Shown here: piece after piece, positions 8,345 to 37,362 of the stretch
How the letters are laid out: every line of letters begins with the position of its first letter
How positions within the stretch are numbered: the stretch's first letter is position 1
DNA from: a virus
Strand: one strand, 5' to 3'
Virus record (IMG/VR): IMGVR_UViG_3300028840_003271
Coordinates: 62,001 to 126,000 of that record
DNA length: 64,000 bases
Made by a program: the position numbers and the translations under genes
The notes under the pieces: model-generated
Databases searched by the model: none
Told to the model about the DNA's origin: nothing
What the model saw: only the letters and a program-made list of their open reading frames with translations

Positions 8345-8396
8345 TTTCCACCAAGTTTGTTTGAGTATTTAGAGGTTTAGTTTTTCTTTTTTATAG

Positions 8397-8480
8397 TGAC
8401 CTAGATGGGATTTGAACCCATATGTCATAAAGACACAGCTTTTTAAGAGCTGAGTGTATACCTATTCCACCACTAGGTCA
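8397..8480 (-). tRNA. tRNA-Leu (UAA)
   Basis: The minus strand folds as a type II tRNA: acceptor TGACCTA/TAGGTCA, anticodon stem CAGCT/AGCTG around loop CTTAAAA (anticodon TAA), a long variable arm (TGTC/GACA) as in tRNA-Leu, and a T arm with GGGTTCAAATCCC. It reads UUA, a preferred Leu codon in this AT-rich phage. No CCA is encoded. Confidence 0.93.
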
Positions 8481-8492
8481 ACCCTTTTTGTT

Positions 8493-8642
8493 TTATCCCC
8501 AATGTGTCATGTTTAGTGGAACACAATAATTTTGTCCACGACATTTCAAGACTACATAATCTTTTCCACTACCCACACAAAGATATTCTTGTCCCTTAAG
8601 AAAAGGAAAATAATCTTCAGTCATAAAGACAACTTCGCTCAT
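8493..8642 (-). CDS. Small hypothetical protein (49 residues)
   Basis: The frame starts MSEVVFMTEDYFPFLKGQEY and ends MTHWG. The start is strongly supported by CGAGGAGTAAAAGAA upstream. A middle Cys-containing beta-like segment (YVVLKCRGQNYC) could be a small barrel. It fits between the tRNA-Leu and the gene ending at 8648. Confidence 0.7.
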   Translation of the reverse strand: MSEVVFMTEDYFPFLKGQEYLCVGSGKDYVVLKCRGQNYCVPLNMTHWG

Positions 8643-8647
8643 TTCTT

Positions 8648-9190
8648 TTACTCCTCGGGAAAACATTCTTTGTAAATCTTTTCAACGATTTCTTTGCTAA
8701 TTGTATGTGATTTTTCACCAACATTACCAGCGTAGTGTATCCATTCTCCATCTATATCAATTTTGACATAATTACCTTGAACCTTAATTGGTGTGAGTCT
8801 TTCATAGATTTGTTTTATTGTTTGTTTTGTAATTTGAACACAACCAATTTTTACCACGTCTGATGTGTCACTAATTTCAACGTCGTAATCACCAATTTTA
8901 ATTTTTTCCTTTTGGGGAAAGTTTTGAAGAAGGTTGACAGCTTCTTCAATTGAAATTTGTCGCACATTTCTTGCACTTTTCTGTGGGTTCCATCCAAGAT
9001 TTCGATAGTCAGTTTTATCGTGTACAATAATCAACCAAGGGTATTTGTTATAACTTATTTGGTCCAAATTAAATATATTCCACTTATTTTCTTTTGCAAT
9101 TGCGTAAATAATTTTAGCTATTTCTACACACAAAGGATCAACTTGTAATTCAAATTCATCTGACAGTGTTAGTTCTGTTACGCTTTTCAT
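8648..9190 (-). CDS. Hypothetical protein, paralogue of the product at 9370
   Basis: Start chosen at ATG 9190 (MKSVTEL), preceded by AGGAGTAAAACAA; 180 residues. It aligns with the product at 9370-9768 along most of that protein: V-D/N-x-L-x-V/E-I/V-A-K-I/T near the start, LGWNP/VGFNP then K-S-x-x-N-x-R-Q in the middle, and VKIGC/IKVGC then T-x-x-T/V-K-Q/K-I-Y near the end. It has an extra C-terminal copy of the last element (EIVEKIYKE). It may recognise a shared ligand; no function is known. Confidence 0.7.
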   Translation of the reverse strand: MKSVTELTLSDEFELQVDPLCVEIAKIIYAIAKENKWNIFNLDQISYNKYPWLIIVHDKTDYRNLGWNPQKSARNVRQISIEEAVNLLQNFPQKEKIKIGDYDVEISDTSDVVKIGCVQITKQTIKQIYERLTPIKVQGNYVKIDIDGEWIHYAGNVGEKSHTISKEIVEKIYKECFPEE

Positions 9191-9224
9191 TTGTTTTACT
9201 CCTTTAGATAGGAACATTTTCCAG

Positions 9225-9377
9225 TTATCCAACCCTTGTTACAAAGTAGGAATTGTTAGGAAAATGACATTTCCAAATTTCCGCTTGTTTTTCTGCTTTT
9301 TGTTGGTCAAACCAAGTAGAGAGACTATATTGAAAATCTTCCCACTTGCTATTTCGACGCCATACTATTTTATACAC
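9225..9377 (-). CDS. Small hypothetical protein with GTG start
   Basis: Fifty residues from GTG 9377 (MYKIVWRRNSKWEDFQYS) to TAA at 9225. An AGGAGAAAAGAA site at the right spacing argues that GTG is used. It overlaps the end of the upstream gene by eight bases. Aromatic and basic residues dominate; function unknown. Confidence 0.65.
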   Translation of the reverse strand: MYKIVWRRNSKWEDFQYSLSTWFDQQKAEKQAEIWKCHFPNNSYFVTRVG

Positions 9378-9768
9378 TTCTTTTCTCCTGAAATTTCAGG
9401 TAAATTTTCTTAACTGTTTCGGCGTCAATTGTTTGACAACCCACTTTAATATACTTTTCGTGAAAAATAACTGGATAACCATCAATAAAGACTTGTTGAT
9501 CTTCCGTAATTATTGGTATAATTTCATCAATAGTAAATTGTCTCAAATTATCGTATGATTTGTTTGGATTAAATCCCACATGTCTGTCTTGATAAAAGAC
9601 TAACCAACATTCTTGAAAGCGACAATTGCGATAATTGTCAAATATACTTTCTGGTGTAAAATTGATTATCCAGCCGTGTTCTTGAGCAATCTTAACCAAA
9701 GTTTTTGCAACTTCAAGATTTAGCGTGTTAACTTCAACTTTTACTTCGTCAGGTAGAAATTCAGCCAT
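9370..9768 (-). CDS. Hypothetical protein, paralogue of the product at 8648
   Basis: The 132 residues start MAEFLPDEVKVEV. The core (VGFNPNKSYDNLRQF, then YIKVGCQTIDAETVKKIY) matches the neighbouring gene at 8648-9190. The two are a tandem duplication separated by the 50-residue gene. The conserved Cys after KIG/KVG is a candidate functional residue. Function unknown. Confidence 0.7.
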   Translation of the reverse strand: MAEFLPDEVKVEVNTLNLEVAKTLVKIAQEHGWIINFTPESIFDNYRNCRFQECWLVFYQDRHVGFNPNKSYDNLRQFTIDEIIPIITEDQQVFIDGYPVIFHEKYIKVGCQTIDAETVKKIYLKFQEKRSV

Positions 9769-9817
9769 TTTTTCCCTTTCTAATCAACAGTAAAGTTACT
9801 TTTGTTAGTTGCAGTTA

Positions 9818-9949
9818 CTAAATAACGCCCCATAGAATTTCATAAAACACTTTTACCATGTCTTCATAGGACATCATATTTGTATCATATCCCATATCTT
9901 CTAATTCATCTTTTAATTCTCCAGGTGATATGTAACTACAATTGTACAT
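9818..9949 (-). CDS. Small acidic hypothetical protein (43 residues)
   Basis: Starts MYNCSYISPGELKDEL and ends EILWGVI. GAAAGGAAACAATAAA precedes the ATG. One amphipathic helix (GELKDELEDMG) and one C-terminal helix are likely. No function is visible. Confidence 0.6.
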   Translation of the reverse strand: MYNCSYISPGELKDELEDMGYDTNMMSYEDMVKVFYEILWGVI

Positions 9950-9950
9950 T

Positions 9951-10307
9951 TTATTGTTTCCTTTCTTTTTGAGAAAGATTGCTCGTAAGATAAAATCGAT
10001 TTGCTAATTCCAATTTATACATTTCCTTTTTTTCCCCTTCCCACATTTCCCAAATTTCTTGTATTGAAATGTTATATTTAGTTTGAATTTTTTTAATTAG
10101 TTTGTGCAGATCTTTATTTGCTGTTTCTAGTCCTTTATAAGCAGTTTGAATAGCGTGTAAGTGTTCGTGTGTATTTAGATTTTCAACGTTAGGATATTCT
10201 GGAGCAATTCTTATTGCCATTCTTGCGACGTGTGAGTGTAATTGATTTATTTTATCAATACAGGTTTTAAGACGTTTAACAATAGATTGTATTTTTCTTC
10301 TCCTCAA
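9951..10307 (-). CDS. Helical basic hypothetical protein
   Basis: The 118 residues are almost entirely helix-forming (RRRKIQSIVKRLKTCIDK, then ETANKDLHKLIKKIQTKY), suggesting a coiled-coil or helical bundle. Its ATG overlaps the stop of the phosphoesterase gene by four bases (ATGA), so it is coupled to it and may work with it. Function unknown. Confidence 0.65.
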   Translation of the reverse strand: MRRRKIQSIVKRLKTCIDKINQLHSHVARMAIRIAPEYPNVENLNTHEHLHAIQTAYKGLETANKDLHKLIKKIQTKYNISIQEIWEMWEGEKKEMYKLELANRFYLTSNLSQKERKQ

Positions 10308-10933
10308 AAAAGAATTTTACCCTCTGGACTAAAATCCAAAGTTGACAATTCATTCAAACAAATAAAGCGGGTTCCTTTATACATTAGGATTTTATTGTTG
10401 TGATGATGACCAAATATCCACAAACCTGGTTGATGAAAATGAAAACATGCTGATAACAAACGGGTTGTATTTGAAAAATTTAGTTTTCCATAATGAGTAA
10501 CTACTTTTTTTGCTATTTGAAAAGGACAATCGTGTGATAAGACTATATTTGGTTTTATTTTACAGTATGCGTCATATGCAGCTTTTTGCTGCATAAAATT
10601 TAATTCTTCCTCTGGCCACCAACTTACTCCTTCAATTCTATATTTTTTGTCTACAGAATAAGCTCCACGAATAAAGAAAAAGTCAATTGGTGAGGAAAAA
10701 AAAGGAATAGTGTGTATTCCAAAATTTCCTAAAAAGTGCGGACGATTTATATCGTTATAATTATCATGATTACCAGGAATTATTTTATGTTTTCGACTGT
10801 CTACTTTATCCAACACAGAATAATCAAACCCAAAATCTCCCAATTGGATCGAATATTCTGCATCGGAAATTAGTTGGAGATATTGTTCATATTTTCCATG
10901 AATATCTCCAATAATTTGAAGATATTTAGTCAT
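10304..10933 (-). CDS. Calcineurin-like metallophosphoesterase
   Basis: The 209-residue protein has all core motifs of the family in order: GDIHG (residues 9-13), GDFG (about 32), GNHD (about 54), LSHD (about 134) and FGHHHN (about 175). These hold two metal ions at the active site. The family hydrolyses phosphomono- or diesters of proteins, nucleotides or nucleic acid; phage members include the lambda protein phosphatase type. The substrate cannot be read here. It is coupled by ATGA overlap to the helical protein downstream. A 46-bp element repeated at 11431 lies 48 bases upstream of its start and may be its promoter. A fossil second copy is at 6771-6849. Confidence 0.9.
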   Translation of the reverse strand: MTKYLQIIGDIHGKYEQYLQLISDAEYSIQLGDFGFDYSVLDKVDSRKHKIIPGNHDNYNDINRPHFLGNFGIHTIPFFSSPIDFFFIRGAYSVDKKYRIEGVSWWPEEELNFMQQKAAYDAYCKIKPNIVLSHDCPFQIAKKVVTHYGKLNFSNTTRLLSACFHFHQPGLWIFGHHHNNKILMYKGTRFICLNELSTLDFSPEGKILF

Positions 10934-10980
10934 TTCTTTTCTTCTTCTAATTCGTGTTTTATTTGACTAGGTTGGAGGTT

Positions 10981-11026
10981 GTTTTCAATAAAAAGGCTTC
11001 ATATATTAGGAGAACTAACAGGATAA
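10981..11026 (-). promoter_or_regulatory. Direct repeat element upstream of the phosphoesterase gene (copy 1)
   Basis: A 46-bp sequence here recurs at 11431-11476 with only two mismatches, exactly 450 bp away. On the minus strand it contains GTTAGTTCTCCTAATAT and, downstream, TTTTTATTGAAAAC. Each copy lies upstream of a minus-strand ribosome site, so a promoter or operator for the left transcripts is likely. No other copy was seen in the window. Confidence 0.5.
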
Positions 11027-11029
11027 AAC

Positions 11030-11060
11030 GAAAAAAGGGTGCCACATATTGTGACACCCT
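11030..11060 (-). terminator. Rho-independent terminator
   Basis: On the minus strand AGGGTGTCACA / TGTGGCACCCT forms an 11-bp stem (one G-U) with a 3-base loop, followed by TTTTTTCG. It ends the transcript of the gene at 11065-11301. Confidence 0.9.
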
Positions 11061-11064
11061 ACAT

Positions 11065-11301
11065 TCAGTATGAACCTTCAATATATTTTCCCGCATCAAT
11101 TAGTGCATATACACTGCTTGCGAGAAACATTGCTATTTCGTGTTTATGTCTTTTACTAAATATGTCGGTTGGGTCGTCTGCAATATTCCATTCAAACGGA
11201 TCTTTACAGTCTTCAATTTTACACGTTCCTGTTAAAACGTGCTTATCATAATCAAACTTGACTTTCACTCTATCAAAAGTCTGAGTAATATTGATTATCA
11301 T
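11065..11301 (-). CDS. Hypothetical protein
   Basis: 78 residues, beginning with beta-like segments (MIINITQTFDRVKVKFDY) and containing two Cys in TGTCKIEDCKD. GGAAAAAAGAAACG precedes the ATG. It is a single-gene transcript: repeat element upstream, terminator four bases downstream. Function unknown. Confidence 0.65.
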   Translation of the reverse strand: MIINITQTFDRVKVKFDYDKHVLTGTCKIEDCKDPFEWNIADDPTDIFSKRHKHEIAMFLASSVYALIDAGKYIEGSY

Positions 11302-11430
11302 CGTTTCTTTTTTCCTTTTTCTGGTCGGACACCAAGTTACTTTGGGTAATCAAACATTTCTATTTGTATTTTTTATTCTTCCATTTCTTTTCTCCTGAAA
11401 TTTGAAATTTATTCGATTAGATTACAGTTT

Positions 11431-11476
11431 GTTTTCAATAAAAAGGTTTCACATATTAGGAGAACTAACAGGATAA
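11431..11476 (-). promoter_or_regulatory. Direct repeat element (copy 2)
   Basis: Near-identical partner of 10981-11026. Downstream on the minus strand comes AGGAGAAAAGAA and then ATGGAAGAATAA, a three-codon frame, before the gene at 11301. The pattern suggests the same promoter used twice, the second with a degenerate leader. Confidence 0.5.
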
Positions 11477-11797
11477 TAAGATATGACAAGGGGTATAGCA
11501 TACTATTTACTATCCATTTTTTTATTTGTGAGAATGAACGTAACACGATAATTACAAACAAGATGATAACTACTTAATAAGAGTAAAAGAAGAATACAAA
11601 CCATACATACTATATATTCAGAAGAGGGGGGGGTGTTTCTGAATTTTTAGATAATAATACCTTTATATTAAAAACAAAAAAACTATTAAAATAACTATGA
11701 CCTTCAAGTCAATAATCTTGATTTTTACTTCAATAAACCATGACTATGACTACACTTATGACTTTTGCAATAATTGACTTTTTTAAGTAGGAAAGTA
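11477..11797. other. Non-coding AT-rich stretch with a G8-loop hairpin
   Basis: No convincing gene is seen in either strand. At 11616-11644 the inverted repeat ATTCAGAA / TTCTGAAT encloses a loop with eight consecutive G, followed by TTTTAG. Further right there are several loose ATGACTATGACT copies. The stretch may be an untranslated spacer between the plus-strand gene at 12038 and the left operons. Confidence 0.5.
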
Positions 11798-11866
11798 GGA
11801 CTATATGGAATCGAACCATATCCTCGGCCTTATAAGAGTCGCGTGCTTACCATTACACCATAGTCC
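11798..11866 (-). tRNA. tRNA-Ile (UAU)
   Basis: On the minus strand, acceptor GGACTAT/ATAGTCC, a D arm with GGT, anticodon arm CGACT/GGCCG around loop CTTATAA (anticodon TAT, one A-C mismatch in the stem), and T arm ATGG TTCGATT CCAT. It reads AUA, rare in many hosts and common in this phage. Tyr (ATA) is less likely because of the loop geometry. Confidence 0.8.
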
Positions 11867-12037
11867 CATACTTTTTATTTGTAGATTTGTTAGATGTGTC
11901 TACCCGACTGAAAAAAAACCTTACTAGTCTTACTGAAAAAAAACTGAAAAAAAACTTTGGCCGATTTCAAAGAAAATGTATGATTTCATATGTCAAAGTG
12001 AAAAAAACACGATACTATTGAAATAGGAGATATGACT

Positions 12038-12295
12038 ATGACTAAATGTTTATGTTGTGGTTTTCAAACAAATAATCCAAAGTTTTGTTCTTGTTCTTGT
12101 GCCAACTTATATAATTATAGAAAATATCCAAGACGATTAGGGCGGCGAAAAATTAATGAGATAAAAAAAGACATGTCCAAAAAACCAAATCATATTTGTA
12201 AGTTTTGTTCTGCTGAATTTTATAGCCCACATAAAAACGCCAAGTTTTGTTCTCGACTATGTTTTCAACGTCATATGAAAAAGCTTTTTGACTAA
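12038..12295 (+). CDS. Small double zinc-finger protein
   Basis: Start chosen at the second ATG (12038), eight bases after AGGAGAT; the first ATG at 12032 is too close. The 85 residues contain two Cys-rich modules: CLCCGFQTNNPKFCSCSC and CKFCSAEFYSPH...FCSRLCFQRH. Such paired CX2C...CX3C fingers occur next to nucleases and in DNA-binding phage proteins. It is the only plus-strand gene among minus-strand neighbours and sits between two tRNA genes. Probably binds DNA; it could be a nuclease fragment. Confidence 0.75.
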   Translation: MTKCLCCGFQTNNPKFCSCSCANLYNYRKYPRRLGRRKINEIKKDMSKKPNHICKFCSAEFYSPHKNAKFCSRLCFQRHMKKLFD

Positions 12296-12303
12296 TTTTA
12301 AGT

Positions 12304-12374
12304 GGGACCATTGGGAATTGAACCCAAATTGCCGGATTAAAAGTCCGGTGTTCTACCATTTGAACTATAGTCCC
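12304..12374 (-). tRNA. tRNA-Lys (UUU)
   Basis: Minus strand: acceptor GGGACTA/TGGTCCC, anticodon stem CCGGA/TCCGG with loop CTTTTAA (anticodon TTT), T arm TTGGG TTCAATT CCCAA. No CCA encoded. It reads AAA and AAG, very frequent in this phage. Confidence 0.93.
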
Positions 12375-12753: not shown

Positions 12754-13257
12754 CTACATAACTTCAGACAAAGGTTCCTTGCTTATTGCAGTGATTTTTT
12801 GCCGGCATCTTCGACAATAATACCTTTTTCCCTCCAAAAATCTTTTCTTTTGAGTTGCTCCCAATGTGCAGCCGTTATGACATGCACATTTTCCACGATA
12901 TCTTTTGACTTCCAATTTTTGACAACTTACATTATGACATCTTTGTGGTAATTTTCCACATTTTCGCATATAATATTGCCATTCAGTTCCATGACTAGGT
13001 GGTTGCCATCTACTTTCCTTAAATTTTTCCATGACTACAATATGACATGCTTCATGCACAACCGTATTTTCCCTTTCCTTTTCGGACATATGTTCCATTA
13101 CATGCGGAGAAAGTTCAATATAATACTTTCCATCTTTTCTATTTGCCCGACCAGCAGTGGTTTTCAATGCACAATTGACTACCATATCACATTTGATATT
13201 CGGGTAGCCACATTTAACAAAGGTTTCATTCATTAAAACACGATATTTGCCGGCCAT
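12754..13257 (-). CDS. SprT-like zinc metalloprotease
   Basis: The 167 residues include VVHEACHIVVM (residues 66-76, HEXXH with catalytic Glu69) and PPSHGTEWQ (third metal ligand His89), the SprT/Spartan arrangement. The C-terminal half carries Cys pairs (CHNVSC, CACHNGC, CRRCRQK) forming the zinc ribbon common after SprT domains. Spartan-type enzymes cleave proteins crosslinked to DNA; SprT members in phages may serve DNA maintenance or processing. AAGGAAAAGAAA precedes the ATG. Confidence 0.88.
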   Translation of the reverse strand: MAGKYRVLMNETFVKCGYPNIKCDMVVNCALKTTAGRANRKDGKYYIELSPHVMEHMSEKERENTVVHEACHIVVMEKFKESRWQPPSHGTEWQYYMRKCGKLPQRCHNVSCQKLEVKRYRGKCACHNGCTLGATQKKRFLEGKRYYCRRCRQKITAISKEPLSEVM

Positions 13258-13375: not shown

Positions 13376-13562
13376 TTTTTCTCTCCTTAAATACTGACTA
13401 TGCCTGACTACCGAATTTTCCACCAAATTAGATTGGGTAATCATTTTCACATTTGGTGGCGAATTGTTTCTTTTTTTGTTTTCTCTTTTTTCCTTCTATA
13501 CTACATTTTACCTATTCAGCTTGCCCCACAAGGGGGGGTTGCATAGGCGAGGTGCCGCAACC

Positions 13563-13591
13563 ATTCTAGCATATCGGCAGACCGAATACAA
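13563..13591 (-). promoter_or_regulatory. Sigma70-type promoter facing left out of the island
   Basis: On the minus strand TTGTAT (13586-13591), 17 bases, then TAGAAT (13563-13568). An A-rich stretch AAAAACATTCTAGGGG precedes the -35 box. It would fire towards the SprT operon. Flanking arms CTATGGCAT (about 13608) and ATGCCATAG (about 13677) are inverted repeats that may bind a regulator. The twin is at 14789-14817. Confidence 0.65.
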
Positions 13592-13689
13592 CCCCTAGAA
13601 TGTTTTTCTATGGCATAGCTTTTGCTGGAATACCCCCCGATTTGACTAGACAGACGGCTGACACTATATATAGATAATGCCATAGCATT

Positions 13690-13895
13690 TGTACATCACT
13701 AATGGGAGGGGGGAGCGAATCCCACACCCCCCAAAGGTACCCCCCTAGGTGGAGAATGCTGTGCCCCACACCCCTCGAAGGCACCCCCCTGGTTGGATAG
13801 GGTTGTTCCCCACACCCCCTAGAAGTGCTTCTCCCCTAGGTGGGGGGTAGGGTATCCCTCGCGTGCGAAGCTGGAGTAGGGTATCCCTCGCGTAT
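13690..13895. repeat. C-rich repeat array, copy 1
   Basis: Imperfect units of 45-50 bp with the consensus CCCACACCCCCCGAAGG, then TATCCCCCTAGTTGG, then ATAGGGTTGTTC, followed by a closing part with AGGGTATCCCTCGCGT twice. The same arrangement recurs at 14945-15150. It lies downstream of the terminator at 13902-13924 and upstream of the left-facing promoter. Frames through it are repetitive and not credible as protein. Confidence 0.75.
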
Positions 13896-13901
13896 GCCCA
13901 C

Positions 13902-13924
13902 AAAAAAAGCCCCCTTGCGGGGGC
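13902..13924 (-). terminator. Strong rho-independent terminator of the island operon
   Basis: On the minus strand GCCCCC-GCAA-GGGGGC (GNRA-type loop) is followed by TTTTTTTG. It comes 12 bases after the last gene of the island cluster. Confidence 0.92.
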
Positions 13925-13935
13925 GAGCATGTTTC

Positions 13936-14076
13936 CTATCGCTTTGATAGGGTTTTCATGCGTTGTTGGTGGTGCCATCCTGCCTTGTGTCGGTCTAGAT
14001 TGCCTCCTCTGACGCGAAGGCCACATTGAGGGCATTTCTTGGGGCTTTGTTGGGAAGGGTCAGTTTTCGTTGTCAT
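13936..14076 (-). CDS. Small C2H2-type zinc-finger protein
   Basis: The 46 residues include CPQCGLRVRGGNLDRHKAGWHH, a CX2C...HX4HH single finger, after a Ser/Lys/Pro-rich N terminus. ACGGAGTCTGTGTT precedes the ATG. It is the last gene before the strong terminator. It could be a small DNA-binding regulator of the island. Frames in other phases over this stretch end in the repeat array and were discarded. Confidence 0.7.
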   Translation of the reverse strand: MTTKTDPSQQSPKKCPQCGLRVRGGNLDRHKAGWHHQQRMKTLSKR

Positions 14077-14113
14077 AACACAGACTCCGTAAAAGGGGAA
14101 GGGAAGCTACAAG

Positions 14114-14329
14114 CTAGTTGATACAATTGGGCGTACGCAAGGGGTGCCCTTTGTCGAACGTGTAACGATAGGGGTCTGCAAGACCATTGTCGATTTGGTG
14201 TTCTTCAGTCTCATATGGTCCTTGGCGAGGACAATCGAGAACTGGGCGGATATGCCACCCTATCGGGGCAATGTGGCGGATTGCTACATAGCCCACTATC
14301 ATATCTTGCGTGCTACCATAAAGGGACAT
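14114..14329 (-). CDS. Hypothetical island protein
   Basis: 71 residues from ATG 14329 (MSLYGSTQDMIVGYVAIRH). The ribosome site is weak (AAGAATC), so the start is uncertain; the frame extends to 14437 through a GC hairpin. No motif is recognised. It is 37 bases upstream of the finger gene. Confidence 0.5.
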   Translation of the reverse strand: MSLYGSTQDMIVGYVAIRHIAPIGWHIRPVLDCPRQGPYETEEHQIDNGLADPYRYTFDKGHPLRTPNCIN

Positions 14330-14373
14330 GTTTGATTCTTGGGTTATAGGGTGCAGAGAAGCTGACCTATTCT

Positions 14374-14393
14374 CCCCCCTCCGGAGAGGGGGG
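14374..14393 (-). promoter_or_regulatory. Stable hairpin between island genes
   Basis: CCCCCCTC-TCCG-GAGGGGGG on the minus strand is an 8-bp all-strong stem with a UNCG-type tetraloop. There is no T run, so it is more likely an RNA stability or processing element than a terminator. It lies in the gap between the genes at 14415 and 14114. Confidence 0.55.
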
Positions 14394-14414
14394 GTGGTAG
14401 GGTAGCTTGCCGTG

Positions 14415-14735
14415 TCACTCTTCAGTGTCTTCAACAAGAAGGGCAGTAAACGCGGTCTTTTTTCCGCTTCCCTTTGCTCGCCCCCTTGGAAGGGAAGGAA
14501 GGATAATCCCCCTTTCCTTCTTCAGGGCATTACGCAGTTCGACGCGAACCTTTTTCGCGTCATCAAGGGACAGTTGAAATTGTTCGGCGAGCTCTTCATT
14601 GGTGAGGGTCGCTTTGCCCTGGGCATCGGTCGCCTGCAATGCAACTACCATAGGGCGGGTACGACGTGCCTTGGCAATCAGTACTTCCCTCGTGTCGCCC
14701 GAAACCGCAACATAATCCTCGTAACTTGCCATCAT
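14415..14735 (-). CDS. Hypothetical island protein, possible small helical regulator
   Basis: 106 residues. TLTNEELAEQFQLSLDDAKKVRVELRNALKKE reads as a helix-turn-helix: a first helix EELAEQF, a turn, and a recognition-like helix DAKKVRVELRNAL. An AAAGGGTGA site precedes the ATG. The promoter at 14789-14817 lies 54 bases upstream, so this is the first gene of a sub-operon and a plausible regulator of the island. The family is not identified. Confidence 0.65.
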   Translation of the reverse strand: MMASYEDYVAVSGDTREVLIAKARRTRPMVVALQATDAQGKATLTNEELAEQFQLSLDDAKKVRVELRNALKKERGIILPSLPRGRAKGSGKKTAFTALLVEDTEE

Positions 14736-14788
14736 TCACCCTTTCGCAAAACAGAGAATAGAATCGGTTGAAACGCACAACACCTCTG

Positions 14789-14817
14789 ATTCTACACTGT
14801 CGACAATCGGAATACAA
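14789..14817 (-). promoter_or_regulatory. Sigma70-type promoter of the distal island genes
   Basis: TTGTAT (14812-14817), 17 bases, TAGAAT (14789-14794) on the minus strand, preceded by AAAACATTTTAGGGG. Box sequences, spacing and upstream tract match the promoter at 13563-13591. A tandem CTGA tract (14890-14913) lies upstream. Confidence 0.68.
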
Positions 14818-15145
14818 CCCCTAAAATGTTTTTTTTTGATTCCGTTTGGCACAAAATATGCTATTGGTGACGGACCATCAAGATAGATCGACTGACTGAC
14901 TGACTGACTGACAGACTAACTACTTCGCGTGGGGGGTAACCAGGTCTCCCCCCTGTCGGCAGATACCGTATTCCACACTCCCCAAAGGAGTATCCCCCTT
15001 GTGGAGAGTGTTGTTCCCCACACCCCCCGAAGGTATCCCCCTAGTTGGATAGGGTTGTTCCCCACATCCCCCAGTGGTGTTTATCCCCCGAGTGGGGGGT
15101 GGAGTTCTCCTCGCGTGCGAGATCCAGCAGGGTATCCCTCGTGTG
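14818..15145. repeat. Non-coding gap with tetranucleotide tract and C-rich array, copy 2
   Basis: No credible gene. Contents in order: a T9 run, a CTGA tetranucleotide tract of about six copies near 14890-14913, and from about 14945 three imperfect C-rich units that mirror the array at 13690-13895, including the closing CTCGCGTGCGA and AGGGTATCCCTCG motifs. The plus strand is open across the array, but only because the repeat lacks stops in one phase. Confidence 0.7.
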
Positions 15146-15397
15146 CTAGGCTAGGCCAAGGGGCAGGAAAAAGTCCCGATCGGCAAGATATTGTTCCATG
15201 CCATGGTACCATGCTGCCCATGCAATAGGATCGTGGGTGAGGGAGAAGGGGTTGTCGGTTGGATGGTCATATCCCCGATTGTACCCCCTCGCATAATGGG
15301 GGTCATACATGAATCTATGCCAATCCCTCTGATTAGGGGGTATGTCGGCAAAATGCCGATCGAGTATTGCAATGTGGCGAAGGGGTTCGGTTAGCAT
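15146..15397 (-). CDS. Hypothetical island protein
   Basis: 83 residues, MLTEPLRHIAILDRHF, rich in His, Tyr, Trp and Pro (HYARGYNRGYDHPTDNP, AAWYHGMEQYLADRDF). GGGAGAATCATCC precedes the ATG. The spacing of 12 bases to the upstream gene indicates an operon. No relative is recognised. Confidence 0.6.
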   Translation of the reverse strand: MLTEPLRHIAILDRHFADIPPNQRDWHRFMYDPHYARGYNRGYDHPTDNPFSLTHDPIAWAAWYHGMEQYLADRDFFLPLGLA

Positions 15398-15409
15398 GGA
15401 TGATTCTCC

Positions 15410-15715
15410 CTATTCTGAGGGGGCAAGATAGAATCTTATCAAAGCTTGTCTTTCATCTTCCGAAATGGAGGGAAAGACTCCCTTCATATAAGAAGCTTTC
15501 TGTACTCGCGTAAAATGCGGAAGGGGGGTTCCCTTATCGCTCAGTCCGAAAATACGATATAGTAATCGGGGGAGATCACCTTTGAGATGCACACCTTCCC
15601 CCTCATCGAAGGGGGTTTCGCCTTGTGCCCTTCTGCCGAGAGTGTAGAACTGGGCAAGTTCTTCCACCCTTTCGGGAGTAGCTCGCCGAGGGGCATATGG
15701 TATCGGAAGGAACAT
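15410..15715 (-). CDS. Hypothetical island protein
   Basis: 101 residues, MFLPIPYAPRRATPERVEEL. The ATG overlaps the stop of the upstream gene (TGATG), with AAAAGGAGGATTCC as ribosome site. A C-terminal amphipathic helix (SEDERQALIRFYLA) is visible. Function unknown. Confidence 0.65.
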   Translation of the reverse strand: MFLPIPYAPRRATPERVEELAQFYTLGRRAQGETPFDEGEGVHLKGDLPRLLYRIFGLSDKGTPLPHFTRVQKASYMKGVFPSISEDERQALIRFYLAPSE

Positions 15716-16062
15716 CAGGAATCCTCCTTTTGGGGGGTAACTAGATAGGCGAGCATTTTCGCAAACTCATCCGACTTTTGGGGGGTATTGTTCCCTCTCC
15801 TTTTTCTCCCCTGTTTTGAGGTATACTTATACCTCCCCTTGCAATTGTTGGGGTGTTTGCCTACTGCCGTTTTCGGATAGCGGCGAGCTAGGATACCTTC
15901 CGATTCTGCCTGACTTGATATGGCCTTGTCCCTTGTCTTTCTCGCCTCCACTAGTTCCATTGCCTTTTGTGGAGTTAGTTTCTGTATCTCGGCAGAGGAA
16001 AGGTACCGTTTCATAAGAGGCAGCATCATCTCCACCAAAATGGGGGGTGTGTTCTCAGTCAT
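15715..16062 (-). CDS. Hypothetical basic island protein
   Basis: 115 residues from ATG 16062 (MTENTPPILVEMMLPLMKRY). The ATG overlaps the TGA of the upstream gene (ATGA), which fixes the start. A helical N-terminal half (AEIQKLTPQKAMELVEARKTRD) is followed by a Lys/Arg-rich region (CKGRYKYTSKQGRKRRGNN) likely to bind nucleic acid. Function unknown. Confidence 0.65.
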   Translation of the reverse strand: MTENTPPILVEMMLPLMKRYLSSAEIQKLTPQKAMELVEARKTRDKAISSQAESEGILARRYPKTAVGKHPNNCKGRYKYTSKQGRKRRGNNTPQKSDEFAKMLAYLVTPQKEDS

Positions 16063-16232
16063 CGTATTACTACCTTTTGGGGTGGAAGGGATTGTACTAG
16101 GCCGGTGGTCGAATCGACCACTATAGCTCGTAATCGCTTGCTGTTTGCCTCCCTTACGTAGGCTAGCAGATAGCCCATGCGGGAGGTTCTCAGTCGGTTG
16201 TTTACTGGCGTGCGTCGAATCTCGACTTGCAT
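16059..16232 (-). CDS. Small basic island protein
   Basis: 57 residues, MQVEIRRTPVNNRLRTSRMG to KVVIR. AGGAGG seven bases before the ATG is the best ribosome site in the island. Arg-rich with a beta/alpha pattern (LLAYVREANSKRLRAIVVD). Both ends interlock with neighbouring genes, so it is a real operon member. An overlapping longer frame in another phase was rejected. Confidence 0.65.
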   Translation of the reverse strand: MQVEIRRTPVNNRLRTSRMGYLLAYVREANSKRLRAIVVDSTTGLVQSLPPQKVVIR

Positions 16233-16256
16233 TGTTCATCCTCCTGCTAGGGGGAA

Positions 16257-16529
16257 CTAGTCCCCCGCTTGCCGAAGTAGTTCCTTTGGGGACAACCCCC
16301 CCGATTGTAGGGCAATCCACTCCGCCCTACTCTGCAATCCCCCCTGCTGGTTGTCGATTCTCCGCCCGATGGTGGGAGAGCTATCGGTATGCAAAGGGGA
16401 TATCGGGGTATTCTGTACAATCCCGAAAAAGGTTCCTTTCGTGCGGGGAGGTTCCTTGCCTCCGATAGGGAAGCACAGTTTCCCTTTGCGGAATTGCCCC
16501 TTGCGTTGACGGGGTTGAATCGTCACCAT
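16257..16529 (-). CDS. Hypothetical island protein
   Basis: 90 residues, MVTIQPRQRKGQFRKGKLCF, basic at the start and ending EWIALQSGGLSPKELLRQAGD. GAAGGAAGACC precedes the ATG. It overlaps the upstream gene by seven bases. Around its stop the palindrome-like GGGGGACTAGTTCCCC may act in RNA folding. Function unknown. Confidence 0.6.
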   Translation of the reverse strand: MVTIQPRQRKGQFRKGKLCFPIGGKEPPRTKGTFFGIVQNTPISPLHTDSSPTIGRRIDNQQGGLQSRAEWIALQSGGLSPKELLRQAGD

Positions 16530-16810
16530 GGTCTTCCTTCATGGAGTATAAAGGTTGCCATTTCATAGGCTAACTTGGCCTGTAATAGACCGAGGTGTGG
16601 CAACACGGACCGAATAACCTTTATCGTGGCAAGTCTTCTCTCATTGCCGCTACTAAGGTTATATTGGCACAATGCCATGATACTTTTGTATTCCTGTTCT
16701 TGCAATTCAAGGGTGGGGTTCGGCTGGTCCATTTGCCACGATCCGTCTGCCTGCTCCCGATACGTTACTACCACGCCATTGTCGCCATGAATTCGGATTA
16801 CGTGTTGCAT
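16523..16810 (-). CDS. Hypothetical island protein, first gene of the cluster
   Basis: 95 residues, MQHVIRIHGDNGVVVTYREQ, an N-terminal beta part followed by helices (ERRLATIKVIRSVLPHLGLL). GGGGATCGGCG precedes the ATG. It is the promoter-proximal gene of the island operon, with an inverted repeat 32-55 bases upstream. Function unknown. Confidence 0.65.
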   Translation of the reverse strand: MQHVIRIHGDNGVVVTYREQADGSWQMDQPNPTLELQEQEYKSIMALCQYNLSSGNERRLATIKVIRSVLPHLGLLQAKLAYEMATFILHEGRPW

Positions 16811-16841
16811 CGCCGATCCCCTTATGCGAAAGTACAGTTCC

Positions 16842-16877
16842 GATTCTCACCGGATTGTGAGAATCTACCGAAGTATA
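16842..16877 (-). promoter_or_regulatory. Inverted repeat and -10-like box before the island operon
   Basis: A perfect 9-bp inverted repeat GATTCTCAC-N6-GTGAGAATC (16842-16865) lies between the first gene and TATACT (16872-16877, minus strand), a -10 candidate. TTGACA occurs at 16882-16887, too close to pair with it. The repeat looks like an operator at the start of transcription. Confidence 0.5.
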
Positions 16878-16887
16878 GCATTGTCAA

Positions 16888-17243
16888 GCCCACCCCCCAA
16901 AAGATATTCGTCGCAAGTCGGTTCATAGTCAATACTTAGGGCAATATTTTTCTCGAAGTGGACACACCGAAAAATGAGACCAGCAAACCGTATGCCAATG
17001 GTTCGGTATGGCATTTGCTGTCGGGTTTTGGTACGAAAGTTGCTGTGAGTCCAGGTGGGGGGGATGCCGGCACCCGTAGGATATAGTAGGATTTGGGGCT
17101 GTGGGGCATAGGTTCGCAGAGAAGGGGGAGAACAAACGTTCATACCCCATATGGGTGGGTGGTATTTTCTGATTTTGGGTTGTGGGGGATATTATACCCC
17201 CCAAAAACGGAAGGCATGTATTCTAAATATAGACCAAACAATA
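16888..17243. other. Non-coding right edge of the island
   Basis: I see no supported gene. There are imperfect hairpins (AGCAAA...TTTGCT near 16980-17020; CCCATATGGG near 17147) and several runs of five to seven G. Composition returns to AT-rich at about 17.21 kb, some 30 bases before the end of the nuclease gene. Confidence 0.5.
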
Positions 17244-18188
17244 TCAAACGGACACCTTTTTGTTTCCGTTTCTTACTAATCTTAATCTATCGTTCATATT
17301 ATCTTTATCACTTCCAAGTTCCAAATGGTAAGGATTACAGCATAATTTATTATCACATTTATGACGAACAACCAATCCGTTAAAAGGTTTATTAGAGAAA
17401 AGAAAATACATTAAACGGTGAGCGGGCCATGTACGTCCTGTTAATTTAATTTGTCCATATCCATCTTTACACGTCTTTCTTGTCCACAATAAACATTCTT
17501 CTTTGTCTCTTATAATAATTGATGCTTTATCTCGACCTTTATATTTTAAGTTTTTCAATAATGGATCAAATTTAAACTCAACTCTTGTTTTATCAAAAAA
17601 AGATAAAAAATATTCAACTTGTCGATACGTTAAATTTAATATTTGATGTTTAATAGTAGTATTATATAACATGGTTGAATCAAGCCCATATAAATATCTT
17701 GCTTCTAATTTCATCGCTTCGTGTTCTGTATTCGTATATTTCAAAACACCATATCCAAAATTATCACGTCCTAACTTATTATAATCTTGTTGTAGGTTTC
17801 TATTTTCGTGTTTGTTTTGATTAAGAAATCTAACATGTGTTTGAAATCTATAACCCAAATTTGAAGTATATCCAATATAAAATTTATTATTAATCAAACA
17901 CTGAATAAAATACAACCCACACAAATTTTCCAAACTTGTATTATTGATAATTTGTTTCTCATTATAGTGTGCTACAGTACCAATTTTAATCAACTTGAAC
18001 TCTCGTGCTTTATTATAAATAGCATATTGTGATTTATTAAAATGTTTTTGTAACTCTTTATTTGACATTTTGTGATACAACTTTTTAAATTCTTGTTCGT
18101 CTTTTGCTGTCCAGTGTGAGCGATATTTTTTATTTGGTCCACAAGAACCTTTTGGTCTACCTACTTTCTTTTTTTTCAACATGTACAT
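17244..18188 (-). CDS. SANT-like / GIY-YIG / HNH fusion endonuclease
   Basis: The 314-residue protein has three parts. Residues 20-67 (HWTAKDEQEFKKLYHKMSN) look like a SANT/Myb-type DNA-binding domain. Residues 90-170 are a GIY-YIG nuclease: GLYFIQ (91), YIG (104-106), Arg114 in NLGYRF, and the metal-binding Glu162 in MKLEARYL. Residues 225-305 are an HNH_3 domain: AHRLMY (256), VRHKCDNKLCC (274), NPYHLE (285-290). Each alone is typical of homing endonucleases; having both catalytic cores in one chain is unusual. AGGAGG precedes the ATG. It abuts the GC-rich island, which it could have helped mobilise, though nothing shows this. Confidence 0.85.
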   Translation of the reverse strand: MYMLKKKKVGRPKGSCGPNKKYRSHWTAKDEQEFKKLYHKMSNKELQKHFNKSQYAIYNKAREFKLIKIGTVAHYNEKQIINNTSLENLCGLYFIQCLINNKFYIGYTSNLGYRFQTHVRFLNQNKHENRNLQQDYNKLGRDNFGYGVLKYTNTEHEAMKLEARYLYGLDSTMLYNTTIKHQILNLTYRQVEYFLSFFDKTRVEFKFDPLLKNLKYKGRDKASIIIRDKEECLLWTRKTCKDGYGQIKLTGRTWPAHRLMYFLFSNKPFNGLVVRHKCDNKLCCNPYHLELGSDKDNMNDRLRLVRNGNKKVSV

Positions 18189-18399
18189 GTATATTATCCT
18201 CCTGTTTTTCTATACACCAAAAAATCCCCCTATGTCCATGTTTAATAATTCCCAACTTCCTCCTCTGTTTACGTAAAGCTTGCAAACTAATTTTTCGCCC
18301 ACTCAAATTCTCCAATTTCCGACATAACTCCTCATCTTTCATGGTGGGAGCTAACTTTTTAATAAGTGCGTGTTCTGCTGGCGTCCACACTATATTCAC
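18157..18399 (-). CDS. Small SANT/Myb-like DNA-binding protein
   Basis: 80 residues from a GTG start (18399) with AAGGAG seven bases upstream. VWTPAEHALIKKLAPTMKDEELCRKL, then ISLQALRKQRRKLGI, follows the pattern Trp-acidic-helix, helix, recognition helix also seen at the N terminus of the downstream nuclease and in the product at 21181-21384. It overlaps the nuclease gene by 32 bases, so they are probably translated together. It may be a repressor or a specificity partner. Confidence 0.65.
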   Translation of the reverse strand: MNIVWTPAEHALIKKLAPTMKDEELCRKLENLSGRKISLQALRKQRRKLGIIKHGHRGIFWCIEKQEDNIHVHVEKKESR

Positions 18400-21180: not shown

Positions 21181-21384
21181 TTACTGACTTACTACCGTAC
21201 AACCTCGCCCACGAGCCTTTTTAATACCTAATTCTCGACGAACAGCACGCACATCAGACACGGTAAATACTGACCCGTTTTTTTCACTTAATGTTTGAGA
21301 CAGCCTTTTATCTGTCATAGTCGAGGCGTTTTCCTGCACATAAGTCTTAACGTCCTCATTCCACACTTTCTTTACTCTTGCCAT
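21181..21384 (-). CDS. Small SANT/Myb-like DNA-binding protein
   Basis: 67 residues from ATG 21384 (MARVKKVWNEDVKTYVQENA), with AGAGAGGAC upstream. The chain VWNEDVKTYVQENAS - MTDKRLSQTL - FTVSDVRAVRRELGIKK follows the same three-helix pattern as the product at 18157. It is a single-gene unit with its own terminator, divergent from the terminase operon, so it may regulate it. Confidence 0.65.
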   Translation of the reverse strand: MARVKKVWNEDVKTYVQENASTMTDKRLSQTLSEKNGSVFTVSDVRAVRRELGIKKARGRGCTVVSQ

Positions 21385-21505
21385 TTTTTTGTCCTCTCTA
21401 AACTTTTTTTGAGCACTTGTGTTTTTTGAATGACAAACTACTTCGTTTATCATATTATATAATACAGTTCGAAACTTTTTTTTCACAAACAAAAAGGAAA
21501 TTTTC

Positions 21506-21694
21506 ATGACTTTTTTGAAATCAACGCTCGAAGTTAAGGCTGTGGGCGGACTTACGGAGCAAATCGGTGGTGAAATTAATTTACCAGATCCACCAAAAGA
21601 GGTTGCTCAGGCAATGTTAATGTCTATCGACGAAATAGACGAAGACGATGAAGAAGAAAACAAAAAAAATGCAAATTCCAAACGGAATGACTGA
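21506..21694 (+). CDS. Small acidic hypothetical protein
   Basis: 62 residues, MTFLKSTLEVKAVGGL, ending in an acidic tail SIDEIDEDDEEENKK. AAAGGAAATTTTC precedes the ATG. It overlaps the sigma-like gene. First gene of the packaging operon; function unknown. Confidence 0.6.
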   Translation: MTFLKSTLEVKAVGGLTEQIGGEINLPDPPKEVAQAMLMSIDEIDEDDEEENKKNANSKRND

Positions 21695-23143: not shown

Positions 23144-23363
23144 TTTAATGGAACCAAGTAGCTTGGTTAAACCAAGTCGAGATAGTGTAAAAAAAGTTAG
23201 ATTAAGTGAGAAAGAAAAGGCAAAACGAAAACAGGAAGAAGAAGAAAAGAAAATTGAGCGTGAAAAATTAAAAAAACCCAAGGATTATTTTGTAATAAAA
23301 GAAGGTGAAGTGGAATGTCAAGGAACCGTTTTTACCGGAGGAAAATATGTCAAGCATAAGTGA
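23121..23363 (+). CDS. Highly charged small protein
   Basis: 80 residues from ATG 23121 (MTKRIPISLMEPS), with AAGGAG six bases upstream. A Lys/Glu-rich coiled stretch (KAKRKQEEEEKKIEREKLKK) precedes a small beta C terminus (YFVIKEGEVECQGTVFTGG). It overlaps both neighbours by 17-23 bases. Function unknown. Confidence 0.6.
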   Translation: MTKRIPISLMEPSSLVKPSRDSVKKVRLSEKEKAKRKQEEEEKKIEREKLKKPKDYFVIKEGEVECQGTVFTGGKYVKHK

Positions 23364-24471
23364 GGAACCACTTATTATACACACTGAAGATTATAAAACT
23401 GAACTAAATCCTAAATGGAATTTAATACCAATATTACCAAAAGTAGCAATGGTTTGGGGTGTAACAGGACAAGACGGGTCATATTTGTCAGAATTTTTAC
23501 TTAAAAAAGGATATACCGTTATTGGTGTTAAAAGACGGACAAGTTATGATAATACCGAAAGATTAAAAGAGGTAAAAAACAACTCTAATTTTACTCTTGT
23601 TGAAGGCGATATTTGTGATTCGGGCAATGTTTTTTCTCTCATTAAAAAATATCAACCAACAGAATGTTATAATTTAGCTGCTCAATCTCATGTTCATACG
23701 TCGTTTGAACAACCATCCTACACATTTCAAGTAAATACTTTGGGTGAACTAAATATTTTAGAAGGAATACGACAATTTAGTCCACACACCAAACATTATT
23801 TTGCTGGAACATCAGAAGAATTTGGTAACAATTATAGTGTTGATCAGTTTGGAAAAAAATATCAAGATGAAGATTGTGAATTTGATCCAAGTTCTCCATA
23901 TGCTGTAAGTAAAGTTGCCGCTCATAATTTGGTTAATCTTTATCGAGATGCTTATAATTTACACGCTAATGTGGGAATATTATTTAATCACGGAAGTCCA
24001 CGACGAGGAGAAGAATTTGTAACACGAAAAATATCAAAATATGTTGCCCAACTAAATTGTTGGATGAAGAAATATGGGCAAAGTAAGTCTGTTATGAAGT
24101 GTTTGAAAGAAGTTGGACACCTACATTTAGGTAATTTAGACGCTTGTCGAGATTGGAGTCATGCTAAGGATATGGTTAGAGGTATGTGGTTAATGCTACA
24201 ACAAGAAAAACCACGAGATTATGTGTTGGCATCGGAACGCACACATTCTGTTCGACAATTTTTAGACGAAGCGTTTAATTATATTGATGTTAATTGGAAA
24301 CCTTTTGTAAAAATAGATGATAAATTTAAACGACCAAAAGATGTAGAATATTTATGTGGTCGAGCAACACGAGCAAAAGAAGAATTGGACTGGAAACCTC
24401 AAATTTGTTTTTCTTTTCTCGTTAAAAATATGGTTCAAGCAGATATTGATTTATTAGGAGATAAAAGATGA
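23347..24471 (+). CDS. gmd: GDP-mannose 4,6-dehydratase
   Basis: 374 residues from ATG 23347 (MSSISEEP), with a GGAGG site in the end of the upstream gene. GVTGQDGSYL (residues 38-47) is the NAD(P)-binding glycine motif of Gmd, TSEEFG (155-160) carries the catalytic Thr/Ser and Glu, and YAVSK (185-189) the catalytic Tyr and Lys of the short-chain dehydratase family. Near the C terminus RPKDVEYLCGRATRAKEELDWKP is typical of the family. The enzyme makes GDP-4-keto-6-deoxymannose, precursor of fucose, rhamnose and perosamine. In a phage it probably alters host surface sugar or glycosylates a phage product. No downstream reductase is seen in the window. Confidence 0.92.
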   Translation: MSSISEEPLIIHTEDYKTELNPKWNLIPILPKVAMVWGVTGQDGSYLSEFLLKKGYTVIGVKRRTSYDNTERLKEVKNNSNFTLVEGDICDSGNVFSLIKKYQPTECYNLAAQSHVHTSFEQPSYTFQVNTLGELNILEGIRQFSPHTKHYFAGTSEEFGNNYSVDQFGKKYQDEDCEFDPSSPYAVSKVAAHNLVNLYRDAYNLHANVGILFNHGSPRRGEEFVTRKISKYVAQLNCWMKKYGQSKSVMKCLKEVGHLHLGNLDACRDWSHAKDMVRGMWLMLQQEKPRDYVLASERTHSVRQFLDEAFNYIDVNWKPFVKIDDKFKRPKDVEYLCGRATRAKEELDWKPQICFSFLVKNMVQADIDLLGDKR

Positions 24472-24686
24472 CAATTACGAAAAGCCAAACTAATAAAGAC
24501 GATATTTTATGGTATATATTTAAAGTAATTTCTCGTTATGGAGTATGTGTAACTGAAGAACAACCAATAAAATGTTTATCTTTTTTGTAATACAGAAGAT
24601 GGTGGGGTTCTCAAATTAAAATATAATAATGGGTTTTATATAGTAGGTTCTGATGGTGTGAAGGAAGTTAATGATGATACAAAATA
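24468..24686 (+). pseudogene. Small gene apparently split by a frameshift
   Basis: ATG 24468 overlaps the gmd stop (ATGA) and the frame runs 40 codons to a stop at 24590 just after a T6 run (CTTTTTTG). In the +1 frame from that run translation continues CNTEDGGVLKLKYNNG and ends at 24686, in the 5' overlap of the next gene. The joined product would resemble the next gene's product (a VLFKILKV-like start and a KLKY-like strand in both). So a T insertion, a programmed shift or a sequencing error is likely. Confidence 0.5.
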
Positions 24687-24895
24687 ATAAATCATATAAT
24701 AATGGGACCGTTTTATTCAAAATTTTGAAAGTTTTAATAGAACATTCGTGTGAGTTTTTAGATTTTAATTATTGGATAACAAATGATAGTAATATAGTTA
24801 TTAAGTTTAAAGACAAACATAATAACCAAACCTATGAAATAAATTCTAGGAATATTAAGAATTTAAGTACGGAGAAGAAAAGTGTCAATCAATAA
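24671..24895 (+). CDS. Hypothetical protein, probable paralogue of the preceding split gene
   Basis: 74 residues, MMIQNNKSYNNGTVLFKILK. AAGGAAGTTA precedes the ATG. Its layout (helix ILKVLIEH, strands NIVIKFKDK and TYEINSRN) parallels the frameshifted gene before it. It overlaps the next gene by 14 bases. Function unknown. Confidence 0.6.
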   Translation: MMIQNNKSYNNGTVLFKILKVLIEHSCEFLDFNYWITNDSNIVIKFKDKHNNQTYEINSRNIKNLSTEKKSVNQ

Positions 24896-25247
24896 ATCAT
24901 ATGGTAAAGAATTAATTTTAGATTTAGCAGATTGTAATACTGAATTGTTTAATGAAGACAAACTTACAGAATATGTTGAGAAGGTGACGGATTTGGTAGA
25001 AATGAAAAGGGTTGGCAATCCGTTTTTTTGGGCCGATTGGCTAACTAAAGAAAAACATTTACATGGAATTTCGTGTTTTCAATTTATTGAAACGAGTAAT
25101 ATTGTAATTCATGCTTTAGATTTATTAGGCAAGGTTTGTGTAAATTTATTTGCTTGTAAAGATTTTGATAGTCAAGATGCTATAGATTTTACTAGAGATT
25201 TTTTTGGAGGTAAAATTATTAATGTGGCTGTACTCGTTAGGGGTTAA
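24882..25247 (+). CDS. SpeD-like S-adenosylmethionine decarboxylase family protein
   Basis: 121 residues, MSINKSYGKELILDLADCNT. The start GKELILDLADC matches the N-terminal strand of bacterial AdoMet decarboxylases. IETSNIVIHALDLLGKVCVNLFACKDFDS aligns with the family's ES-HISIHT-x-PE...V-D-x-F-T-C: Ser72 would be the residue that cleaves to pyruvoyl, His77 and Cys92 match catalytic positions. Differences (Thr before the Ser instead of Glu, Asn after it) leave self-cleavage in doubt. Family members make decarboxylated SAM for spermidine; some phage relatives may decarboxylate ornithine or arginine. GGAGAAG precedes the ATG. Confidence 0.72.
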   Translation: MSINKSYGKELILDLADCNTELFNEDKLTEYVEKVTDLVEMKRVGNPFFWADWLTKEKHLHGISCFQFIETSNIVIHALDLLGKVCVNLFACKDFDSQDAIDFTRDFFGGKIINVAVLVRG

Positions 25248-25540
25248 TGAGTAAACATAACGGTAACGGTAGTCGAAATTATCGTTCTTTAGCATATCGA
25301 AAGTGGCGAAAAGCTGTTCGGAATAGGGATGGTGGTCGATGTCAGTGGCCAGGATGTAAACATAAAGGTAGAGTGTATGCTCATCATATTCGTAAATGGG
25401 AAGATTATCCGTCATTAAGATATGATGTGGATAATGGAATTTGTTTATGTTATCGTCATCATAAGCAAGTTACTGGACGAGAGGAGGAATATGTGAAATT
25501 TTTTAAGATGATTCTTAGGAGAAATGAAAATGCAGATTGA
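25247..25540 (+). CDS. HNH endonuclease
   Basis: 97 residues. CQWPGCKHKG, then YAHHIRKWEDYPSLRYDVDN and GICLCYRHHKQV, form a typical HNH core with metal-binding Cys pairs and the catalytic His in AHH. It is a small free-standing HNH of the kind found next to terminases, where some cooperate in DNA packaging; it could instead be a homing nuclease. The ATG shares a base with the stop of the SpeD-like gene (TTAATGAG). Confidence 0.88.
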   Translation: MSKHNGNGSRNYRSLAYRKWRKAVRNRDGGRCQWPGCKHKGRVYAHHIRKWEDYPSLRYDVDNGICLCYRHHKQVTGREEEYVKFFKMILRRNENAD

Positions 25541-25880
25541 AGATCAAAAATATATTTATTGTTGGAAGTGTGGAAACAAAATACCTGAACCCGGTCGTTT
25601 AGATTGGTCTAATAAAGCTTGTAATGAATGTAGTCAAGAAGTCTATAAAATTTTTAATAAATATGGTCCATGGGAGTATATACCGGTTACTGGTTGTGTA
25701 ACACAGGTTGGTTTAACAGATAGACCAAATTGGTCAAACTATGAAGAAATGAAAGATATTATTACATTAAAAGCTTTTGGGTTTGATGAGCAATACGATT
25801 CTTATCTTTTGAAAAAAAAGAAGTATTCTCATATTAATGTAATTTTTTGTGGTCCTATAATTCACTATAATAAGGAATAA
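25530..25880 (+). CDS. Hypothetical zinc-ribbon protein
   Basis: 116 residues from ATG 25530 (MQIEDQKYIYCWKC), eight bases after AGGAG; ATG 25524 is too close. CWKCGNKI and CNECSQEV form a four-Cys zinc ribbon at the N terminus. The remainder has a beta-rich C terminus. Function unknown. Confidence 0.7.
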   Translation: MQIEDQKYIYCWKCGNKIPEPGRLDWSNKACNECSQEVYKIFNKYGPWEYIPVTGCVTQVGLTDRPNWSNYEEMKDIITLKAFGFDEQYDSYLLKKKKYSHINVIFCGPIIHYNKE

Positions 25881-25882
25881 AA

Positions 25883-26330: not shown

Positions 26331-26346
26331 TAGTAAGAAATAAAAA

Positions 26347-35874: not shown

Positions 35875-35948
35875 ATTTTTTTGGTGTAGATGGATGACAG
35901 AACCATAAATATATGGATAGACTACTTACAACATAAATGGAGAATAAA

Positions 35949-37361: not shown

Positions 37362-37362
37362 T
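37353..37362 (+). promoter_or_regulatory. GGTGTATAAT promoter motif
   Basis: GGTGTATAAT overlaps the last codons of the homing nuclease gene and sits 44 bases before the gene at 37406. Confidence 0.6.

What the first reader, a model, noticed from the sequence alone, without database searches (positions are those of the whole stretch)
13500..17215. GC-rich island with nine small genes of unknown function in an AT-rich phage
Composition changes within tens of bases at both ends. Genes are packed, overlap by 1-4 bases, have strong ribosome sites and end at a strong terminator, so the island is expressed and maintained. None of the nine proteins is recognised. The absence of an integrase leaves the entry mechanism open; the right edge touches a GIY-YIG/HNH nuclease.
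Basis: partly seen in the sequence, partly recalled or inferred. Interest (0 to 1): 0.75.

Follow-up and report, generated by a model that had tools for sequence, protein, structure and literature searches.

The report
Foreign multi-gene cassette in a phage
A 3.7 kb stretch of clearly foreign DNA, holding about nine small genes of unknown function and its own duplicated promoter modules, sits inside an AT-rich uncultured phage; it is a large example of a known kind of gene cassette that phages pick up, with donor and function still unidentified.

Summary
Maximum-likelihood edges are 13517 and 17215; GC is about 0.52 against 0.32 for the 170,004-nt contig, which has a 144-nt terminal direct repeat (circular, apparently complete). 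The tetranucleotide signature is unrelated to the phage (r = 0.07; other same-size chunks 0.69 +/- 0.09, minimum 0.45), while the phage's other GC-rich stretches look native (r = 0.53-0.56). So the DNA is foreign and compositionally of one source. The genes are real: nine minus-strand ORFs with ATG and Shine-Dalgarno match (eight kept as genes) against 2.7 in shuffles, 0 of 300 as many. No product matches Pfam, PHROGs, NCBIfam or PADLOC above chance, and no relative was found in phage or plasmid records or in the IMG/VR and GTDB scans made. One reads into the last three genes; the other lies beyond the terminator and points out of the island at phage genes (SprT-like). These promoters occur nowhere else in the phage. 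Best reading: a polycistronic 'moron' cassette, perhaps spread by co-conversion with the adjacent GIY-YIG/HNH nuclease. Donor, entry route and function are not shown; assembly chimerism is unlikely but not excluded without reads.

The parts
13517..17215 (.). GC-rich foreign island
   Evidence: maximum-likelihood edges; tetranucleotide signature r = 0.07 to the phage
16842..16900 (-). likely promoter of the operon: TTGGGG-17-TATACT with TGC before the second hexamer (16900-16872), and an operator-like palindrome GATTCTCA-N8-TGAGAATC (16842-16865)
   Evidence: read from the sequence; palindrome unique in the 170 kb
16523..16810 (-). gene 1, 95 aa; weak resemblance to ribosomal L7/L12 C-terminal domain (E 0.0099, below cut-off)
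16257..16529 (-). gene 2, 90 aa, orphan
16059..16232 (-). gene 3, 57 aa, orphan, strong Shine-Dalgarno
15715..16062 (-). gene 4, 115 aa, basic orphan
15410..15715 (-). gene 5, 101 aa, orphan, strongest Shine-Dalgarno
15146..15397 (-). gene 6, 83 aa, orphan
14789..15120 (-). regulatory module 2: three repeats spaced 44-45 nt (about 14967-15100), then promoter TTGTAT-17-TAGAAT (14817-14789) reading into gene 7
14415..14735 (-). gene 7, 106 aa, possible helix-turn-helix protein (low-confidence model)
14114..14329 (-). gene 8, 71 aa, no clear ribosome site, least certain gene
13936..14076 (-). gene 9, 46 aa, zinc-finger-like Cys/His pattern
13909..13924 (-). intrinsic terminator GCCCCCGCAAGGGGGC-TTTTTTT
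13563..13868 (-). regulatory module 1, duplicate of module 2: three 44-nt-spaced repeats and promoter TTGTAT-17-TAGAAT (13591-13563) pointing out of the island to the left
12754..13257 (-). left flank: SprT-like metallopeptidase gene, first sizeable gene downstream of module 1
   Evidence: no minus-strand terminator found in between
17244..18188 (-). right flank: free-standing GIY-YIG + HNH_3 nuclease gene, AT-rich like the phage

Best explanation
The island is a horizontally acquired multi-gene 'moron' cassette. A block of DNA from one foreign, more GC-rich source entered the auxiliary region of this phage, most likely by non-homologous recombination, since it has no integrase. It carries its own expression system: a right-hand promoter with an operator-like palindrome starts a leftward operon of six small genes; an internal promoter module (three ~44-nt repeats upstream of a sigma70-type promoter) starts three more, which end at a strong terminator; a duplicate of that module beyond the terminator points out of the island towards the SprT-like phage gene. 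The repeats are most likely binding sites for one regulator, possibly the gene 7 product, so cassette and neighbouring phage genes may respond to the same signal. The small orphan products most likely act on the host early in infection (takeover or counter-defence). The adjacent GIY-YIG/HNH nuclease could spread the cassette among related phages by cutting cassette-free genomes and co-converting the flanking DNA. Shown: foreign signature, gene reality, duplicated modules, terminator. Inferred: regulation, function, insertion route, role of the nuclease.
For: Edges and GC; tetranucleotide r = 0.07 against 0.69 +/- 0.09 for the phage, halves of the island agree with each other at 0.49 but with the phage at about 0; SD-preceded genes beyond all 300 shuffles; duplicated modules with promoters unique to the island; terminator; GIY-YIG + HNH_3 gene at the right edge; closed circular contig. 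Literature: moron definition (PMC1524935), co-conversion by free-standing homing nucleases (PMC2988022), nucleases at exchange boundaries (PMC10448857).
Against: No donor and no cassette-free relative was found (flank absent from relatives), so insertion is inferred from composition only. No function could be assigned. The promoters are consensus matches. No read data.
Confidence: 0.68

Rival explanations
1. Assembly chimera: a fragment of another organism or phage in the sample was joined into the contig by mistake.
For: Signature and GC are wholly foreign; no relative of the island found anywhere; no reads available.
Against: It would need two false joins inside an otherwise circularly closed contig (144-nt terminal repeat); no long exact repeat is shared between the two edges that could cause mis-joining (longest 9 nt, T-rich); the only near-copy of edge sequence elsewhere in the contig has just 13 exact bases in a row.
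Confidence: 0.12
2. Remnant of a small plasmid or phage satellite that integrated into the phage: the 44-nt repeats would be iterons of a replication origin rather than regulator sites.
For: Two arrays of three regularly spaced repeats, compact operon of small genes, one compositional source.
Against: No replication initiator, integrase or packaging gene recognised; no match in 72,556 plasmids by DNA or protein; both arrays lie at a similar distance upstream of a conserved promoter, which suits gene control better.
Confidence: 0.12
3. Native phage genes with unusual composition: the GC level reflects codon or structural constraint, as in the other GC-rich stretches of this phage.
For: Other GC-rich stretches exist at 34-36 and 38-41 kb.
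Against: Those are long genes with native-type tetranucleotide signature (r = 0.53 and 0.56) while the island is at 0.07; its non-coding parts are as GC-rich as its genes.
Confidence: 0.05

Closest known systems
Morons (inserted phage gene cassettes with own promoter and terminator, described for lambdoid phages)
   Same: Insert with distinct %GC, own promoters and terminator, no integrase
   Different: About nine genes instead of one or two; duplicated repeat-promoter module, one copy pointing out of the insert; the phage is a large AT-rich uncultured one
HEG islands / co-conversion tracts beside free-standing homing endonuclease genes (T4 seg genes, ICP1)
   Same: A GIY-YIG/HNH nuclease gene lies 28 nt from one edge of a block of foreign DNA
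   Different: Nuclease on one side only and with phage composition; no second phage sharing the block was found, so exchange is not shown
Early host-takeover gene clusters of large phages
   Same: Operon of small orphan proteins with strong ribosome sites in the auxiliary region
   Different: Those normally share the base composition of their phage; function here is untested

Membership tests
Moron cassette | base composition distinct from the surrounding phage | tested here: met
   GC 0.52 against 0.32; tetranucleotide r = 0.07
Moron cassette | own promoter and terminator | tested here: met
   duplicated TTGTAT-17-TAGAAT promoter, terminator 13924-13909; sequence matches only, transcription not measured
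Moron cassette | absent at the same place in related phages (empty site) | tested here: inconclusive
   the flanking SprT-like gene was not found in 25 related records, so the site cannot be aligned
HEG island | homing-type nuclease gene at the boundary | tested here: met
   GIY-YIG E 5.5e-9, HNH_3 E 8.2e-8 at 17244-18188
HEG island | block of high nucleotide identity shared with another phage, bounded by nucleases | tested here: not met
   no similar DNA in phage records and no nuclease on the left side
Plasmid or phage satellite remnant | replication initiator, integrase or packaging gene | tested here: not met
   no family match for any product
Plasmid or phage satellite remnant | iterons that act as replication origin | not testable with these tools
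   44-nt repeats present, function untested

The most novel reading that the evidence does not exclude
An undescribed kind of mobile phage element: a self-regulated cassette of about nine orphan genes with repeat-array promoter modules, one of which takes over transcription of the phage operon next to its insertion site.
Probability: 0.12. Interest if true: 0.75.

Novelty: new member of a known kind. Interest (0 to 1): 0.4.

Why it matters
Foreign DNA in a large phage is rarely so clear-cut: edges, operon and control sites are all readable. That makes it a good place to test how multi-gene cassettes enter phages without an integrase, and whether they bring neighbouring phage genes under their own control. 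All products are orphans, so any function found (for instance counter-defence) would be new.

Tried and rejected
Terminal repeats or target-site duplication at the edges: longest direct match 9 nt of T-rich sequence, longest inverted 8 nt (CCCCACAA), not convincing. Structured RNA in the repeat arrays: z = -0.67 for module 1 and -3.89 for module 2, not consistent; DNA fold z = -1.52; no Rfam family above threshold, best E 0.83 at 16.4 bits against a cut-off of 50. tRNA as insertion site: tRNAs lie at window 8.4, 11.8 and 12.3 kb, none at an edge. DNA patterns of promoter, left edge and repeats: none in IMG/VR, the left-edge pattern also none in GTDB genomes. Protein relatives of four island genes in IMG/VR and of one in GTDB genomes: none; these scans reach close relatives only. 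Single-sequence structure models were too poor to use (pLDDT 62 and 56) and the one fold search gave nothing below E = 0.3. Sequence search of solved structures gave only chance-level or implausible hits, the best E 0.0067 to a titin construct. The hit of gene 7 to Serratia phage Kevin (E = 10) is chance level.

Full report
Setting. The window is bases 62001-126000 of a 170,004-nt IMG/VR virus record. The two ends of the record repeat each other directly over 144 nt, so it is circularly closed and probably complete. Mean GC is 0.321. Its terminase (28205-30313) has hundreds of relatives in IMG/VR, the 80 kept at 50-57% identity, but only about 20-30% identity to cultured phages: an uncultured lineage. 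Head and tail genes lie right of about 21 kb. The island lies in the leftward auxiliary block, which is not conserved in the relatives fetched.

The observation. Other GC-rich parts exist at 34-36 and 38-41 kb. To test whether the island merely has high GC, I compared tetranucleotide deviations corrected for lower-order composition. Same-size chunks of the phage correlate with the phage mean at 0.69 +/- 0.09 (minimum 0.45), the 38-41 kb gene at 0.56, the 34-36 kb genes at 0.53, the island at 0.07. The operon part and the left part of the island correlate with each other at 0.49 and with the phage at about zero, while native pieces of similar length have mean 0.58 and minimum 0.37. Relatives of the phage at 38-43% GC still resemble the phage backbone (0.42-0.70) rather than the island (-0.04 to 0.31). 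The island is therefore foreign and looks like one source.

The genes. ORF length alone proves little at 52% GC, since the plus strand has long ORFs too. ATG plus Shine-Dalgarno does: nine such minus-strand ORFs of at least 45 aa against 2.72 +/- 1.25 in dinucleotide shuffles, none of 300 as many. One of the nine (13745-13978) runs across the terminator and the first repeat array and is not counted; I keep eight plus 14114-14329, which lacks a clear ribosome site. In most of them GC is lowest at the second codon position, as usual for genes. The ORF at 16865-17143 has no ribosome site and is probably not a gene, so the right 400 nt is an upstream non-coding region.

What the products are. No product has a significant match in Pfam, PHROGs, PADLOC or NCBIfam, and phage and plasmid records match neither by DNA nor by translated search. 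There are only weak leads: gene 1 resembles the L7/L12 C-terminal domain (E 0.0099, below the curated cut-off), gene 9 has a zinc-finger-like Cys/His pattern, gene 7 has a helix pair that reads like a helix-turn-helix (low confidence).

Two modules of about 300 nt are duplicated within the island: a 178-nt block at 80.6% identity (E 1.7e-39) and the promoter block at 80%. Each has three repeats spaced 44-45 nt, a spacer of about 100-130 nt, and on the minus strand TTGTAT, 17 nt, TAGAAT. This promoter sequence occurs twice in the island and nowhere else in the 170 kb. Module 2 reads into gene 7; the terminator at 13924-13909 closes genes 7-9. Module 1 lies beyond the terminator and reads leftwards out of the island; no minus-strand terminator was found between it and the SprT-like gene at 12754-13257. 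A palindrome with perfect 8-nt arms lies beside an extended -10 box upstream of gene 1. That one regulator binds the repeats and couples cassette and neighbour is inference.

Entry and spread. No integrase and no convincing end repeat were found. The GIY-YIG + HNH_3 gene ends 28 nt from the right edge and is AT-rich like the phage (GC 0.28), so it is not part of the foreign piece. Free-standing homing nucleases carry flanking DNA along by co-conversion (PMC2988022) and sit at exchange boundaries between phages (PMC10448857); this one may help spread the cassette, but that it brought the cassette in is not shown. The 51-nt match between the left edge and G000:7250-7300 (78%, with a 25-nt core differing at two bases) is unexplained; at the second place it lies inside an apparent membrane-protein gene and in another frame, so it is a nucleotide-level resemblance.

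Classification. By distinct %GC, own promoters and terminator it works like a moron (definition in PMC1524935); the empty-site test could not be done. It has more genes and a more elaborate control region than the usual moron. A chimera stays possible until reads are mapped. A plasmid or satellite remnant is possible but has no replication or mobility gene to support it.

Noticed in passing
G000:7250-7300 (outside the window) and window 13502-13551: A 51-nt stretch at the left island edge has a 78% match in an AT-rich gene 68 kb away, with a GC-rich 25-nt core (CTCGCCTAYGCRACCCCCCCTTGTG) differing at two bases.
   Followed up: partly
window 18157-18399 and 21181-21507: Two related small genes flank a block with fibre-like genes (18.4-21.1 kb); relatives L016 and L020 show a single copy right next to the 21648 homologue, so the block looks like an insertion between duplicates.
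   Followed up: partly
window 35937-41153: A second GC-rich stretch (988-aa gene with PKD and InlB-like repeats, GC 0.48) lies close to a gene with DUF559/DUF7487 nuclease-like domains; its signature is native-type.
   Followed up: partly
window 8396-12374: Three tRNA genes (Leu-TAA, Ile-TAT, Lys-TTT) on the minus strand left of the island.
   Followed up: no
window 23305-27177: By sequence look, sugar-nucleotide dehydratase-like (23305-24471) and KDO-8-phosphate synthase-like (26347-27177) genes, hinting at surface-sugar changes in a Gram-negative host; not tested against family libraries.
   Followed up: no
window 13414-13480: A 15-nt inverted repeat followed on the plus strand by a T-rich run, just left of the island edge: plus-strand terminator or leader hairpin of the outward transcript.
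   Followed up: no
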